In this document: positions 22,230 through 27,779 of the stretch, piece after piece | Numbering within the stretch: the first letter of the stretch is position 1 | How the letters are laid out: the number at the start of each line of letters is the position of its first letter | DNA from: Modestobacter versicolor | GTDB taxonomy: Bacteria > Actinomycetota > Actinomycetes > Mycobacteriales > Geodermatophilaceae | Length of the DNA: 64,000 bases | Direction: 5' to 3' | NCBI RefSeq assembly: GCF_014195485.1 | Contig: NZ_JACIBU010000001.1 | Coordinates: 2,790,001-2,854,000 of the forward strand | Notes under the pieces: generated by a model | The model's database searches: none | Told to the model about the DNA's origin: nothing | Seen by the model: only the letters and a program-made list of their open reading frames with translations | Program-made: the position numbers and the translations under genes

Positions 22230-23399
22230 TCAGCGGACGACGGACCTGGCCACGTGCGGGTCGCCCTCGGCCGCCGCGGCCGCCGCCTGGCGGGCCTCCA
22301 GCCGCTCGCGCTGCGGGACGACGGTGTACTTCGGGTCCTTGGCGCTCTGCATGCCCGCCTCGAAGACGCCCATCCGGGTCAGCAGCGACCCGGCGGCCAG
22401 CAGCACGCCGCCGGCCACGGCACCGGCCCGGGTGCGGCCGGCCAGCGCGGTGAGCCCGGCGCCGGTGACGGTCGCCGTCTTGGCCGCCCGCAGCAGCTTC
22501 CCGGCCTTGCCCAGGTGGTAGGGCTCGCTGACGATCCCGTGCCCGTTCTCCACCCGGTGCATCGCCGCCAGCTCGACGGCCACGCCGGTCAGCGCGACCT
22601 TGCGGGACGGCCCGGCCTCGTCGACCGGCGTCAGCGCCATGGTGATCCCGCCGCCGGCGGCCATCGCCGAACCCGCGAAGACGAACGGCAGCTCGTCGTG
22701 CGGTGCGTGCCACGAGGGGACGGCGGTGTTGGCGATCAGCACCGCGGTGTAGGTGGCCATCGGCCCGCCGAAGGCAGCGGCGCCCACGGCCGACGTCCGG
22801 CGCAGCGCCGGGAACGCCCCGGCCATCCGCGGCAGGAAGGGCAGCACCCTGCTCGCCAGGCCGAGCACCGGCTTCAGCTCGAGCAGGCGCACCGCGGCGG
22901 CCGCCGAGGCGAGCGCGCTGAACGGCGACAGGATGTAGGAGCCGACCGACAGCGGCGAGGTCACCTTGAACACCCGCAGCATGTGCAGGAAGCGCTCCGG
23001 GCGCCCGAGGTCGTCGATCAGCAGCACGACCGAGGCGAGCGCGCCGACGCCGGCGGCGTACTCGGCGTTGCGGGCGAGCTTCGGCCGGCCGGTGAACTCG
23101 GCCAGCGCGGCGATGACCGACGAGGTGCCGGCCGCCCCGCCCATGAAGAAGTAGATCGGGACCTCGGGGTTCTTCCAGGTCGGCGACTTGATGATCTGCC
23201 GGCCGTAGTAGGAGCTGAACTCCGCCTCCGGCACCATCGCGGCCTCGCGGTTGCCGCTCCCCCAGCCACCGCCGCCACCGCGCCGGCGCTTGCGCCGGGG
23301 CTTGGTGAGGTCGGCTCCCCCGGCCCGGTGCCAGCCGGCGCCGGGGACGACGGGGGCCTCGCCCGCGGGCTGGTCGGTGCCGGTACCCGCCTCGGTCAC
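22230..23399 (-). CDS. nrfD: NrfD-type membrane subunit of formate dehydrogenase
   Basis: 389 residues from GTG 23399, which has GAGGAGG six bases upstream and overlaps the stop of the iron-sulfur gene by four bases (GTGA). After a polar N-terminus with a basic patch (KPRRKRRR), SSYYGRQIIKSPTWKNPEVP leads into eight or so hydrophobic segments containing FFMGGAAGTSSV and LLIDDLGRPERFLHMLRVFK. These are typical of NrfD/PsrC proteins, the quinone-reactive membrane anchors of molybdopterin oxidoreductases. It would pass electrons from the iron-sulfur subunit to the menaquinone pool. A haem-b FdnI-type subunit is absent; NrfD takes that place. The last gene of the operon. Confidence 0.87.
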   Translation of the reverse strand: MTEAGTGTDQPAGEAPVVPGAGWHRAGGADLTKPRRKRRRGGGGGWGSGNREAAMVPEAEFSSYYGRQIIKSPTWKNPEVPIYFFMGGAAGTSSVIAALAEFTGRPKLARNAEYAAGVGALASVVLLIDDLGRPERFLHMLRVFKVTSPLSVGSYILSPFSALASAAAAVRLLELKPVLGLASRVLPFLPRMAGAFPALRRTSAVGAAAFGGPMATYTAVLIANTAVPSWHAPHDELPFVFAGSAMAAGGGITMALTPVDEAGPSRKVALTGVAVELAAMHRVENGHGIVSEPYHLGKAGKLLRAAKTATVTGAGLTALAGRTRAGAVAGGVLLAAGSLLTRMGVFEAGMQSAKDPKYTVVPQRERLEARQAAAAAAEGDPHVARSVVR

Positions 23400-24463
23400 G
23401 AGCGCCTCCTCCCCGCGAACGCCGACGCCACGACGCCCACGATCAGCGCCGCACCCGTGGCGGCCGCCTTCCACATCGAGGGCAGGTCGCGGGTGGTGAC
23501 GATCGGGTCCGGCGGCAGGCCGTAGACCTCCGGCTCGTCGAGCAGCAGGAAGAAGGCGCCGTTGCCGCCCACGCCGTCGTCCTCGTCGCGGCCGTAGAGC
23601 CGGGCCGTCTCCACGCCCTGCGACTTCAGCGTCGCCAGCCGGGCGTCGGCCCGGGCCTGCAGCTCGTCGAGGTCACCGAACTGGATGGACTGCGTCGGGC
23701 AGGCGGTCGCGCACGCCGGCTGCAGCCCGTCGGTGAGCCGGTCGTAGCACATCGTGCACTTGAAGACCCGGCCGTCGTCCTCGCGCTTGTCGATGACGCC
23801 GTAGGGGCAGGCGGGCACGCAGTAGCCGCAGCCGTTGCAGATGTCCTGCTGCACCACGACGGTGCCGAACTCGGTGCGGAACAGCGCGCCGGTCGGGCAG
23901 ACGTCCAGGCAGCCGGCGTGCGTGCAGTGCTTGCAGACGTCGGAGGACATCAGCCAGCGGATCTGCTTGTCCGCGCCGCTCTGACCGGTCTGCGGGTCGA
24001 ACTCGCTGAGCGCCTCGGCGTTGAGCACGCTGGTCTGCGCGTTCAGCGAGCTGTCGGCCTGCGGGCTGATCGGGTTGACCGGCAGCCCGGAGTCCCGGCG
24101 GTCGTCGCCGGGGCGCCCGAAGGAGGGCATCGGCAGGTCGACGGCGCGGCTCTGCTCGATGAACGCCACGTGCCGCCACGAGTTGGCGCCGAGCATCCCG
24201 GTGTTGTCGTAGGACATGCCGGACAGGCCCAGGGCGTCGCGCTTGCCGTTCGAGTCGTCCATCGGGAGCGTGTTCCACTCCTTGCAGGCCACCTCGCACG
24301 CCTTGCAGCCGATGCAGACCGAGGTGTCGGTGAAGAAGCCCACCCGCGCCGGGTGGTCCTCCTCGTAGCCGGCCTCGCCCTGCACGTCGGGCAGCGGCCC
24401 GTAGAGCCGGTTCTTGGCCCCCGGCCCGTCCAGCCCCGGGCTCGCCGAGCTGACGGTGGTCAT
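23396..24463 (-). CDS. Formate dehydrogenase iron-sulfur (electron-transfer) subunit
   Basis: 355 residues. Four ferredoxin-like cysteine groups are visible: CIGCKACEVAC (50-60), CKHCTHAGCLDVCP (about 177-190), CNGCGYCVPACP (about 209-220) and CTMC with a following CATACP (about 237-262). Together they should hold four [4Fe-4S] clusters and carry electrons from the catalytic subunit to the NrfD subunit. FFTDTSVCIGCKACE and HVAFIEQ are typical of FdnH/HybA-like subunits. A hydrophobic stretch near the C-terminus (about 332-350) may anchor it. ATG 24463 has GGAG upstream. No Tat motif is visible at the N-terminus. The gene is 22 bases from the catalytic gene and overlaps the next by four bases. 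Confidence 0.92.
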   Translation of the reverse strand: MTTVSSASPGLDGPGAKNRLYGPLPDVQGEAGYEEDHPARVGFFTDTSVCIGCKACEVACKEWNTLPMDDSNGKRDALGLSGMSYDNTGMLGANSWRHVAFIEQSRAVDLPMPSFGRPGDDRRDSGLPVNPISPQADSSLNAQTSVLNAEALSEFDPQTGQSGADKQIRWLMSSDVCKHCTHAGCLDVCPTGALFRTEFGTVVVQQDICNGCGYCVPACPYGVIDKREDDGRVFKCTMCYDRLTDGLQPACATACPTQSIQFGDLDELQARADARLATLKSQGVETARLYGRDEDDGVGGNGAFFLLLDEPEVYGLPPDPIVTTRDLPSMWKAAATGAALIVGVVASAFAGRRRS

Positions 24464-24485: not shown

Positions 24486-27400
24486 TCACGCGCCGCTCGC
24501 CTCCATCTTGCTGGGGTCCTCGTCCGGTGCCCGGCCGTTCACGCCGACCCGGCCGGACTCGACGCCTGCACGCATCCGGTAGGACTCGACGAACTCCAGC
24601 AGCTCCGGGCCGCGCGGACGGCGCCCGGGCCGGATGTCTGCGGTGCTGACCTTGTCCTCCTGGATGTGCGTGTTCGCGTCGAGCACGATGCCCAGCAGGT
24701 CGTTGGCCGAGTCGCCGGTGGACAGGCCCGCGTAGGACCAGTGGTAGGGCATGCCGATCTGGTGGACGACCTGCCCGTCGCGCAGCTTGATCGGGCGCAC
24801 CCGCTCGGTCACCAGCACCTTGGCCTCGATCGCCGACCGGGCGCTGACCAGCGTGGCGAACTCGCCGTTGACCAGGCCGCGGAGCTCGGCGAGCTCCGGG
24901 CTCACCTCGACGAAGAACTCCGGCTGCAGCTCGGCGAGGTAGGGCAGCGTGCGGCTCATCCCGCCGGCGGTGTGGTGCTCGGTCAGCCGGTAGGTCGTCA
25001 CCTGGAACGGGAAGACCTCGCTCAGCGATGGGTTCTCCCGGTTCCACGGCCCGGCGATCCGCTCGATCGTCGGGCTGGACTGCTGGTCGTAGAGGAAGTT
25101 CTCCACGACCGACTCGGACGGCTCGTAGTGCGTCGGCAGCGGGCCGTCGACCAGCCCGGCCGGCGCGTACAGCCAGGCCTTGCCGTCGCCCTGCATGACG
25201 AACGGGTCAGCGCCGCCGATGGCGTCCTGCGCCCGCGCGCCCTCCGGCGGCACGTAGTCCGGCCGCTTGGTGCCCTCGAAGTCCGGGACGTCGTTGCCGG
25301 TCCACCTCCCGGCCTCCTCGTCCCACCACACGTAGGCCTTGCGCTCGCTCCACGGCCTGCCCTCGGGGTCGGCCGAGGCGCGGTTGTAGAGCATCCGCCG
25401 GTTGAGCGGCCAGGCCCAGCCCCACTCGAGGGCCACCGGGCCCTGCTCGCGGCCGGGCTTGCGCCGGTCGGCCTGGTTGACCTCGTCGGCGAAGACGCCG
25501 CAGTAGATCCAGCAGCCACCGCTGGTCGAGCCGTCGTCCTTCATCTCCATGTAGGACGACAGCGCCCGGCCGTCGGGGCCCACGCCGTTGATCTCGCGCA
25601 GCACCGCCTCGGCGTCCGGGTCGGCGGTCTCGCCGATCGTCGGGTAGTCCCAGGTCATGTGCAGCAGCGCCTGGTCGCGGGGGTCGGTCGACCCGGCCAG
25701 CCGCTGCCGGAGGATCCGGCCCAGGTGGAAGTAGAACCACAGGTCGCTGCGGGCGTCGACCGGCGGCTCGACCGCCTTGTGCCGCCACTGCAGCAGCCGC
25801 TGCGTCTGGGTGAAGGTGCCTTCCTTCTCCGTGTGCGTGGCGGCCGGCATGAAGAAGACCTCGGTGCCGATCGTCTCCGGCGCCATCTCGCCGGACTCGA
25901 TCTCCGGCCCTTCCTTCCAGAAGGTCGCCGACTCGATCATCTGCAGGTCGCGGACGACCAGCCAGTCGAGGTTGGCCAGCCCGAACCGGTTCATCTTCCC
26001 GTTGGGGTGCCCGACCGAGGGGTTCTCGCCGACCAGGAAGTAGCCGTGCACCTTGCCGGCGATCATGTCGGCGATCGTCCGGTAGGAGCTGTGGTCGCCG
26101 TTGATCTTCGGGATCCAGTCGAAGCGGAAGTCGTTCTCCGGCTGGGCGGCGTCGCCGAACCACGCCTTGAGCAGGCTGACGGTGTAGGCGCGCTTGTTCC
26201 CCCAGAAGCCGGCCTTGCCCGCGGCGTCGGCGACGTAGTCGTCCAGGGTCTGGTGCTGTGCCGCGTGCGGCATCGGCAGGTAGCCCGGGAGCAGGTTGTA
26301 CAGCGTCGGGACGTCGGTCGAGCCCTGGATGCTGGCGTGCCCGCGCAGCGCCATGATCCCGCCGCCGGGCCGGCCGATGTTGCCCAGCAGCGTCTGCAGG
26401 ATCGACGCGCTGCGGATGTACTGCGCGCCGACGCTGTGCTGCGTCCAGCCCACCGAGTACACCCACGCCGTCGTCCGGTCGCGACCGCTGTTGGCGGTGA
26501 CCCACTTCGCGACCTGCTCGAACACCTCGGGCTCGATGCCGCAGACGTCGGCGACCATCTGCGGGGTGTAGCGGGCGAAGTGCCGCTTGAGCACCTGGAA
26601 CACCGAGCGCGGGTGCTGCAGCGTCTCGTCGCGCAGCGGCTTCGCCGGGATCGGCGGGCCGCCGCTGCCCAGGGACTGCCCCTTGTCGACGGCCTTGATC
26701 TCGTGGTGGTCGTCGACGGCGTCCTGCGCGGCGGCCCCCGCGGGGTCGTCGGCGCCGGAGTGCGGCGCCTCCTCGAACTCGTACTTCCAGGTGTCGGTGT
26801 CGTACTGGCCGTGCTCCGGGTCGAACCCGGAGAACAGGCCGTCGAGCTCCTCGGTGTCGACGAAGTCCTCACCGACCAGCGCCGCCGCGTTGGTGTAGGC
26901 GACGACGTACTCCTTGAAGTACAGCTCGTTGTCCAGGACGTACTTGATCAGCCCACCGAGGAACGCGATGTCGGTGCCGATGCGCAGCGGGACGTGCAGG
27001 TCGGCGATCGCACTCGTCCGCGTGAACCGCGGGTCGATGTGGATGATCTTGGCGCCCTTGGCCTTCGCCTCGGACACCCACTGGAACCCGACCGGGTGGC
27101 ACTCGGCCATGTTCGAACCCTCGATGACGATGCAGTCGGAGTTCGCCAGGTCTTCCAGGAAGTTGGTCGCGCCACCACGGCCGAACGAGGCTCCCAGACC
27201 GGGAACCGTCGAAGAGTGCTATATGCGGGCCTGGTTCTCGATCTGCACAGCGCCCAGCGCGCTGTACAGCTTCTTCATCAGGTAGTTCTCTTCGTTGTCC
27301 AGCGTCGCCCCGCCGAGGCTGGCCAGCCCCATCGTGCGGTTGACCCGCTTGCCGCCGTCGGACTCCTGCCAGCCCTTCTCGCGGGCCTCCAGGACGCGGT

Positions 27401-27779
27401 CGGCGATCATCTCCATCGCCGTGTCGAGGTCGAGGTCCTCCCAGTCCGTGGCGTACGGACGGCGGTACTTGACCGTCGTCACCCGGCTCGGGCTGGTGAC
27501 CAGCGACTTGCTGGCGCTGCCCTTGGGGCAGAGCCGGCCGCGGCTGATCGGCGAGTCGGGGTCGCCCTCGATCTGGACGATCTTCTCGTCCTTGACGAAC
27601 ACCCGCTGGCCGCAGCCGACGGCGCAGTACGGGCACACCGACTTCACGACCTTGTCGGCCGTGGCGGTGCGGCTGACCGTCTGCTCCGTCGCCTTGCTGC
27701 GCGCGGCATGGCCGCGGCCGAGCGGATCGGAGCCAGTGAGCTGCCGGAACACCGGCCACGCGTCGAGCCACGTCTTCAC
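24486..27779 (-). CDS. Selenocysteine-containing formate dehydrogenase catalytic subunit, Sec encoded by UAG
   Basis: One continuous frame of 1097 residues if the in-frame TAG at 27221-27219 (codon 187) is read as selenocysteine. Before it: an [4Fe-4S] site CPYCAVGCGQ...LCPKG and NQARI. After it: HSSTVPGLGASFGRGGATNF. This is exactly the Sec context of FdnG-type enzymes (NQAR-V-Sec-H-x-P-T-V). The rest matches formate dehydrogenase throughout, including GSNMAECHPVGFQWV, IDPRFTRTSA, GWTQHSVGAQYIRSASILQ, GCWIYCG and RLTEHHTAGGM. The enzyme oxidises formate to CO2 at a Mo/W bis-MGD centre. GTG 27779 is the only reasonable start; its ribosome site is weak and no Tat motif is seen. An annotation program would split it into two pieces (27779-27219 and 27110-24486). 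Confidence 0.93.
27189..27207 (-). promoter_or_regulatory. SECIS-like hairpin
   Basis: On the minus strand the RNA GGUUCCCGGUCUGGGAGCC folds as a 7-bp stem (one G-U pair) around the loop GGUCU. It starts 11 nucleotides after the UAG. The E. coli fdhF SECIS apical hairpin has the same GGUCU loop and the same 11-nucleotide distance from its UGA. It should bind the SelB elongation factor and direct selenocysteine insertion. Confidence 0.8.
27219..27221 (-). other. UAG codon read as selenocysteine (residue 187)
   Basis: CTA on the plus strand, TAG in the gene, in the place where formate dehydrogenases carry Sec or Cys. The canonical Sec codon is UGA. UAG-directed Sec was shown for Geodermatophilus and Blastococcus by Mukai and colleagues (2016, Facile Recoding of Selenocysteine in Nature). 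The window itself contains no tRNA-Sec, selA, selB or selD. Confidence 0.88.

What the first reader, a model, noticed from the sequence alone, without database searches (positions are those of the whole stretch)
27189..27221. Formate dehydrogenase uses UAG, not UGA, as its selenocysteine codon, with a SECIS-like hairpin
The catalytic-subunit frame is interrupted only by TAG at 27221-27219, between NQARI and HSSTVPGLG, the exact Sec context of FdnG-type enzymes. Eleven nucleotides after the codon a 19-nucleotide hairpin with loop GGUCU matches the E. coli fdhF SECIS in loop and spacing. The downstream part is fully conserved with no other stop, so decay is unlikely. UAG-programmed Sec has been reported in Geodermatophilus and Blastococcus (Mukai et al. 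2016), so the phenomenon is known for the family; this locus is an independent sequence example. It also predicts a UAG-decoding tRNA-Sec (CUA anticodon) and matching SelB, neither of which is in this window.
Basis: partly seen in the sequence, partly recalled or inferred. Interest (0 to 1): 0.92.

Follow-up and report, generated by a model that had tools for sequence, protein, structure and literature searches.

The report
Selenocysteine written with UAG codon
This bacterium's formate dehydrogenase carries a stop codon, UAG, exactly where selenocysteine belongs, and its genome holds a matching selenocysteine tRNA, so it probably reads UAG instead of the usual UGA as selenocysteine; this code variant is already known from what appears to be the same bacterial family.

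Summary
The catalytic-subunit frame of a formate dehydrogenase (FDH; window 24486-27779, minus) has one internal stop, TAG at 27221-27219, aligned with the selenocysteine of E. coli FdnG (1kqf). A 7-bp, 5-nt-loop hairpin starts 11 nt later and shows compensatory changes.

The predictions were tested and met. The same genome has a tRNA-Sec with anticodon CUA followed by selA and selB, selD about 8.5 kb away, and no pylS match. Two further in-frame UAG genes with hairpins (UGSC family) lie elsewhere in the genome.

Among 112 genomes of the family, a CUA tRNA-Sec was read in 101 and only a UCA one in 7 (three genera). All 63 FDH loci read at the site in this family have TAG; 68 of 68 listed rows from other families have TGA. 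This fits the published UAG-Sec code of Geodermatophilaceae, not a new kind.

Additional, and not found in my paper searches: TAG genes sit in five places on an FDH tree, so acquired UGA genes were probably re-coded repeatedly. The codon before the stop is the rare ATA in 63 of 63 TAG loci but ATT in 18 of 20 TGA relatives. Selenocysteine itself is inferred, not measured.

The parts
24486..27779 (-). Formate dehydrogenase catalytic (alpha) subunit, GTG start at 27779 (start inferred), internal UAG, terminal TGA
   Evidence: NCBIfam NF041513 formate_DH_Act 1904 bits (cut-off 1400) with TAG read as U; the downstream piece alone scores 1540 and the upstream piece 336; closest solved chain by sequence 1kqf_A
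27219..27221 (-). In-frame UAG at the selenocysteine position (residue 186 counted from 27776)
   Evidence: aligned with Sec (X) of 1kqf_A
27222..27224 (-). ATA (Ile) codon directly before UAG; the only ATA among 43 Ile codons of this gene
   Evidence: ATA in 63 of 63 TAG FDH loci read at the site
27189..27207 (-). SECIS-like hairpin GGTTCCC-GGTCT-GGGAGCC, 11 nt after the codon
   Evidence: best hit of covariance model R1 in the genome, E 6.8e-9 (this sequence is in the model)
23396..24463 (-). Formate dehydrogenase iron-sulfur (beta) subunit
   Evidence: TIGR01582 FDH-beta 177.6 bits, E 2.7e-52, below the curated cut-off of 334.7
22230..23474 (-). Next open frame on the same strand, perhaps the membrane subunit (unconfirmed)
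   Evidence: position only; no NCBIfam family at 1e-10

Best explanation
The gene encodes a selenocysteine-containing formate dehydrogenase whose Sec codon is UAG. A tRNA-Sec with a CUA anticodon is charged with serine and converted by SelA with selenophosphate from SelD; SelB carries it and binds the hairpin just after the codon, so that only UAG codons followed by such a hairpin are read as Sec, while other UAG codons still end proteins. The FDH hairpin is of the same form in the UGA-using relatives, so the change appears to lie in anticodon and codon, not in SelB-hairpin recognition. Shown here: the sequence parts, their joint presence, co-variation of codon and anticodon across genomes, and conservation of the hairpin. 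Inferred from established bacterial Sec biology (E. coli SelA/B/C/D): charging, delivery and the identity of the residue.
For: (1) TAG at the Sec site of FdnG-type FDH. (2) tRNA-Sec, RF01852 64.3 bits (gathering 47), loop CUCUAAA, anticodon CUA (ARAGORN calls it tRNA-Pyl), then selA TIGR00474 406 bits and selB TIGR00475 279 bits on the same strand; selD TIGR00476 390 bits. (3) Family survey of 112 genomes: CUA read in 101, UCA only in 7, none read in 4. (4) Codon follows anticodon: 68 of 68 non-family FDH rows listed (hand count; the list is cut) have TGA and none TAG; the site itself was read as TGA in the 20 of these that I fetched, and as TAG in 63 of 63 family loci. tRNA-Sec matches listed outside the family in the order sample are UCA, except one contig that I judge a contaminant. 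(5) Two more genes of this genome have an in-frame TAG followed by a hairpin, at G000:C1:800858 and 91507, in the UGSC family, whose two other members here have no stop. (6) Covarying stem. (7) TAG also ends ordinary genes: 6 of 34 called genes, and rpmE, which stands before a release-factor gene on C2, so it is not globally reassigned. (8) No pylS match. (9) Published for the family: PMC5330540 section 17 (that section read in full).
Against: No protein or selenium data. The UCA genera of the family (g6-g8) gave no FDH match at 1e-100, and the two genomes among them with UGSC matches (G067, G073) have no internal stop there, so the UGA side of the comparison rests on other families. In two draft genomes with TAG FDH genes (G098, G099; 72% and 80% complete) no tRNA-Sec was read (G098's one match of 48 bits was not opened). 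The selB match covers profile positions 2-339 of 581, so the hairpin-binding end was not tested. The two own UGSC hairpins form only 5 of the 7 model pairs, and RNAfold folds the 45 nt from the codon into larger structures that pair the codon itself. G080 has a CUA tRNA-Sec but both FDH copies lack the Sec/hairpin stretch and are out of frame.
Confidence: 0.95

Rival explanations
1. UAG is read as pyrrolysine, as ARAGORN's 'tRNA-Pyl' call suggests.
For: ARAGORN labels the CUA tRNA as tRNA-Pyl. A 2013 screen put Geodermatophilus obscurus in its table of potential Pyl organisms ('Verified by Infernal', footnote 'No UAG-anticodon', no pylS; passages of PMC3639795).
Against: No pylS match in this genome. 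The tRNA matches RF01852 end to end and leads a selA-selB run. The site is Sec in homologues.
Confidence: 0.005
2. The tRNA is a general amber suppressor (serine or another residue) and UAG is a sense codon genome-wide.
For: The anticodon is CUA; bacterial tRNA-Sec is charged with Ser first (recalled).
Against: TAG ends 6 of 34 called genes in the window plus L006 and 12 of 116 in other CUA genomes, and the own rpmE gene. The covarying hairpin after the codon would have no role.
Confidence: 0.01
3. Nonsense mutation or sequencing error in a decaying gene.
For: A single stop in an otherwise intact frame; dN/dS is slightly higher after it than before it.
Against: The same TAG in 63 of 63 FDH loci read at the site in this family; dN/dS downstream 0.22-0.43; frame open to the normal end.
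Confidence: 0.005
4. Sec at UAG is right, but the UGA-to-UAG changes in acquired FDH copies came by recombination with the resident TAG gene, so that ATA+TAG is one inherited block and not a repeated adaptation.
For: ATA and TAG are adjacent and together in all 63 family loci read. L231/L166 have stem letters (GTG..GGC) also seen in L240, a TAG gene outside the acquired groups.
Against: In L232 the codons either side (CGT before, GCC ACC GTC CCC after) match one or more of its UGA relatives and not the two resident-type genes compared, which limits a tract to about 12 nt; L165 keeps the AGT codon in its loop, as its UGA relative does.
Confidence: 0.3

Closest known systems
UAG-programmed selenocysteine in Geodermatophilaceae (Mukai et al. 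2016, recalled and seen only as cited, paper not held; PMC5330540, passages and section 17 read)
   Same: CUA tRNA-Sec; UAG at the Sec site of formate dehydrogenase and UGSC-motif proteins
   Different: This species is a further case. Added here are the family-wide count, the scattered position of TAG genes on the FDH tree and the ATA/ATT pattern before the codon
Canonical bacterial UGA-Sec system (E. coli selABCD, fdhF/fdnG)
   Same: selA, selB, selD, tRNA-Sec; hairpin 11 nt after the codon with loop GGUCU (E. coli spacing and loop recalled); Sec position of FdnG
   Different: Codon UAG and anticodon CUA in place of UGA and UCA
Pyrrolysine system (UAG, tRNA-Pyl CUA)
   Same: UAG codon and CUA anticodon; ARAGORN confuses the two
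   Different: No pylS match; hairpin after the codon; tRNA matches RF01852

Membership tests
UAG-Sec system of Geodermatophilaceae | In-frame UAG at the Sec position of a selenoprotein homologue | tested here: met
UAG-Sec system of Geodermatophilaceae | tRNA-Sec with CUA anticodon in the same genome | tested here: met
UAG-Sec system of Geodermatophilaceae | selA, selB, selD | tested here: met
   selB matched over profile positions 2-339 of 581
UAG-Sec system of Geodermatophilaceae | SECIS hairpin directly after the UAG | tested here: met
   for FDH; weaker for the own UGSC genes (5 of 7 model pairs)
UAG-Sec system of Geodermatophilaceae | Genome belongs to Geodermatophilaceae | tested here: inconclusive
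   genome unnamed; the CUA trait, FDH and UGSC genes fit the family as described in PMC5330540; a plasmid search gave no name
UAG-Sec system of Geodermatophilaceae | Selenium or Sec shown in the protein | not testable with these tools
   needs MS or 75Se
Pyrrolysine system | pylS | tested here: not met
   0 matches at E<=0.001
Genome-wide amber reassignment | UAG absent as terminator | tested here: not met
   TAG ends 6 of 34 called genes; rpmE ends in TAG

The most novel reading that the evidence does not exclude
The Sec codon and the codon before it evolve as one unit. In this family, UGA selenoprotein genes that arrive by horizontal transfer are re-coded to UAG, at least four times, and each time the preceding rare codon also changes (ATT to ATA) to one that suits UAG. 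A rare, A/U-ending codon in the P site would then be an unrecognised part of the bacterial Sec-insertion signal, and the altered code a mild barrier that incoming genes have to clear.
Probability: 0.45. Interest if true: 0.62.

Novelty: new member of a known kind. Interest (0 to 1): 0.52.

Why it matters
It supports, from whole genomes, that a bacterial lineage moved selenocysteine from UGA to UAG while keeping the hairpin, and it supplies a natural comparison for how a recoded codon changes: about a hundred UAG species, with UCA-bearing sister genera and UGA-using sister families. The codon before the Sec codon, and acquired FDH genes in a UAG genome, make the role of codon context in Sec insertion directly testable. 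It also shows that such genes and tRNAs are easily mis-annotated (split FDH, 'tRNA-Pyl').

Tried and rejected
Two Sec codons in one gene: one search listed '1 TGA, 1 TAG' for 8 FDH rows and '1 TGA' alone for 2. All 10 were fetched. The 8 (L151-L158) have TAG at residue 186 and no other internal stop up to residue 1087-1089; L159 (starts after the site) and L160 show no internal stop. The TGAs are taken to be terminal stops. Rejected.

CUA tRNA-Sec outside the family: an exact-pattern scan of genome contigs (84,980 species by its description), written to exclude tRNAs with C at the last 5' anticodon-stem position so that the family would not fill the list, gave 13 stretches. None holds a match at the tRNA-Sec gathering score; one (L174, Erysipelotrichaceae MAG) is a tRNA with CUA that matches the general tRNA model, and three others (L167, L175, L179) hold general-tRNA matches. 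The scan misses CUA tRNAs with C at that position and other departures from the pattern, and near relatives of the window's genome may be left out of it. In the order survey (397 genomes; match list cut) the only CUA match listed outside the family is G230:C194, a 4.8-kb contig about 85-87% identical over about 1 kb to family sel loci, inside a draft genome that also has a UCA tRNA-Sec: judged a contaminant. One further listed match (G408) is a chance match by its letters.

More selenoproteins in this genome: SECIS model R1 gave three strong hits (FDH and two UGSC, all in the model) and 28 weak ones (E 0.015-9.2). I looked at the frames of 27 of the 28: nine begin with TAG, five of these with at least 50 codons open on both sides. 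Of the five, L367 is the ordinary TAG end of rpmE before a release-factor gene, L366 lies opposite a DUF349 gene, and L357, L359, L360 have no Pfam domain in the frame and no gene-like G+C pattern. I judge all weak hits chance; a further selenoprotein is not excluded. An AhpC-type protein was not searched for.

Naming the organism by a plasmid match failed.

ATA as a UAG-only signal: rejected. In a phylum-wide pattern sample ATA also precedes TGA (57 of 87 TGA matches by hand count; ATT 13, GTT 7, TTA 1, ATC 8, ATG 1), so the wider rule is an A/U-ending codon; only the local ATT/ATA difference follows UGA/UAG.

Full report
What is there. On the minus strand the frame from 27779 (GTG, inferred start) to 24486 encodes an FdnG-type formate dehydrogenase catalytic subunit (NF041513, 1904 bits with TAG read as U). 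It has one internal stop, TAG at 27221-27219, and ends with TGA. The TAG aligns with the Sec of E. coli FdnG in 1kqf. Eleven nucleotides later stands a 7-bp stem with loop GGUCU (27207-27189). The next genes on the same strand are an FDH-beta-like iron-sulfur protein, below its curated cut-off, and an unassigned frame.

Machinery. In the same genome (4.59 Mb, 2 contigs) a tRNA-Sec lies at C1:1687097-1687188 minus: 64.3 bits against RF01852, anticodon CUA; ARAGORN names it tRNA-Pyl. selA (406 bits) and selB (279 bits, matched over profile positions 2-339 of 581) follow on the same strand, and selD (390 bits) lies at C1:1695691-1696599. pylS gave no match.

Other UAG genes. The UGSC family (NF041046) has four matches in this genome: two without a stop and two with one TAG. 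The TAGs are at C1:800858 (+) and C1:91507 (-), in the motif TAG-Gly-Ser-Cys. A hairpin with loop AGTGT follows, but it forms only 5 of the 7 pairs of the FDH geometry, and RNAfold prefers larger folds for the 45 nt from the codon; UGSC genes of relatives such as L309 have a full 7-bp stem 11 nt after the codon. In the match list every internal stop is TAG, none TGA. A covariance model built from 13 hairpins that I chose, these three included, ranks these three genes first in the genome (E 6.8e-9, 1.6e-8, 1.1e-6), then 28 weak hits that I judge chance.

Hairpin. Over 83 FDH loci read at the site (63 TAG, 20 TGA; L159-L161, which lack the site, were dropped) the stem has the same form in both codes, with loop GGTCT, AGTCT or AGTTT. 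The pair of two third codon positions is standard in 42 of 42 distinct sequences, in five pair types, against a shuffled mean of 25.0 (0 of 5000). The outermost pair is weak: 28 of 42, 386 of 5000 shuffles as high, and only 6 of 16 among TGA sequences. In the mixed FDH+UGSC set all seven pairs show double changes.

Distribution. Of 112 genomes of the family, I read a CUA tRNA-Sec in 101 (nine genera) and only a UCA one in 7 (genera g6, g7, g8). In 4 none was read: G068 and G099 have no match, G072 and G098 have only 48-52-bit matches, of the size that tRNA-Ser gives, which I did not open. G059 has both. In the CUA tRNAs read, the pair next to the anticodon loop is C-G where the seven UCA members of the family have U-A; some UCA tRNAs elsewhere in the order also have C-G. 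Outside the family, in the cut match list of an order sample of 397 genomes, tRNA-Sec matches are UCA, except one 4.8-kb contig judged a contaminant. FDH codons follow: 68 of 68 listed non-family rows have TGA (hand count, cut list; the site was read in 20 of them). Against a neat picture: the nine genomes of the UCA genera and three CUA drafts (G035, G095, G097) gave no FDH match at 1e-100, so no TGA FDH was seen inside the family, and what the UCA genera use Sec for was not found. A scan of 84,980 species for CUA tRNA-Sec, with the limits given under Tried and rejected, found none elsewhere.

Repeated re-coding. On an FDH tree of 83 rows (quick search) TAG needs five changes, all forced by well-supported branches, and one TAG clade is rejected (AU p 8e-13). 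Besides a main clade of 54 there are TAG genes in G001 (next to a gene of family f5), in G105 (next to f2; support 87, below the 95 mark), in G039/G058 (next to f15) and in a long-branched group of five. The non-family genes read are TGA and the CUA tRNA was seen in this family only (the contaminant contig apart), so the simplest reading is acquisition of UGA genes followed by change to UAG. Transfer outward with the reverse change is not excluded, and long branches call for care.

Codon before the stop. All 63 TAG loci read have ATA there; the 20 TGA loci, which I chose from the listed rows, have ATT 18, ATA 1, ATC 1. In called genes of CUA genomes ATA is 0.3-0.8% of Ile codons, and the window gene has one ATA among 43 Ile codons, this one. 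Independent contrasts on the tree: five, all in the same direction (in a few random pairings four, with one not differing); five pairs cannot reach p<0.05. In UGSC genes the codon before TAG is GAT in 15 of 24 loci read (22 relatives and 2 own) against GAC in 8 of 8 loci with Cys, while GAT is 3-4% of Asp codons in CUA genomes. So U before UAG is tolerated in UGSC, and the ATA choice in FDH is not explained by the last base alone. Phylum-wide, 78 of 87 TGA matches have A or T as the last base of that codon (hand count). I read this as a preference for a rare A/U-ending codon in the P site when Sec is inserted, with a local ATT/ATA difference that follows UGA/UAG. The cause is unknown; a slow codon that gives SelB time, or weaker competition from RF1 and RF2, are guesses. 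Two paper searches on the point found none or one paper, whose passages do not treat it; the library lacks most subscription papers.

Stop usage. With a crude gene caller TAG ends 18 of 150 genes in CUA samples and 40 of 138 in UCA samples; TAG against TGA alone is 18:131 and 40:90, Fisher p 1.8e-4. The window and sel region alone (6 of 34) do not differ significantly (p 0.14), and the groups differ in G+C (about 0.75 and 0.68-0.69), so this is only suggestive. The own rpmE gene ends in TAG directly before a gene with PCRF and RF-1 domains on contig C2, so a class-1 release factor gene is present; whether it is RF1 rests on the usual gene order (recalled).

Literature. Mukai et al. 2016 is not held and is known to me through citation. 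PMC5330540 (passages; section 17 read) says that three Geodermatophilaceae genomes have CUA tRNA-Sec with FDH and UGSC selenoproteins and one AhpC. PMC10778597 (passages) says that UAG, UAA and ten sense codons are recoded to Sec in some species; PMC8124441 (passages) names UAG and the Cys codons. PMC4513850 (passages) treats partitioning between Sec and RF2 at UGA in E. coli. PMC3639795 (passages) has Geodermatophilus obscurus in a table of potential Pyl organisms with the footnote 'No UAG-anticodon' and no pylS. A search for Geodermatophilaceae with selenocysteine listed two papers, PMC5330540 and one on tick microbiota (seen as a listing).

Verdict. The locus is a further, well-supported case of a known code variant. 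What I did not find in print, within these searches, is the lineage-wide extent, the repeated appearance of TAG in acquired genes and the codon-pair pattern.

Noticed in passing
L067 1173-1263 (G059:C17, minus): A genome with the CUA system carries a second, divergent tRNA-Sec with UCA (81.8 bits) at a 64% G+C contig end near transposase genes; a local search found no selA, selB or FDH on that 69-kb contig. It might permit two Sec codons in one cell, or be an idle passenger.
   Followed up: partly
L160 and L161 (G080:C12 and C4): Both FDH copies of this CUA genome lack the stretch that holds the Sec codon and hairpin, with the same 3' breakpoint and a changed frame: real loss or assembly error.
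   Followed up: partly
L006 9098-9189 (minus): ARAGORN labels the CUA tRNA-Sec as tRNA-Pyl; automatic annotation may report pyrrolysine in this family (run on the overlapping locus L001).
   Followed up: yes
L230 (G230:C194): A sel-locus contig about 85-87% identical to the family's lies in a draft genome of another family: probable contamination.
   Followed up: partly
FDH residue 151 in the 63 TAG loci among L037-L066, L150-L166, L231-L249: A second rare ATA codon at query residue 151 in 27 of 63 TAG loci, and in 2 of 20 TGA loci.
   Followed up: no
L174 2779-2868 (minus): An Erysipelotrichaceae MAG contig has a tRNA with CUA anticodon that matches the general tRNA model and not tRNA-Sec.
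   Followed up: no
Genera g6-g8 (G067 to G075): A UCA tRNA-Sec was read in seven of these nine genomes, but none gave an FDH match at 1e-100 and no UGSC match with a stop was seen; their selenoproteins are unidentified.
   Followed up: no
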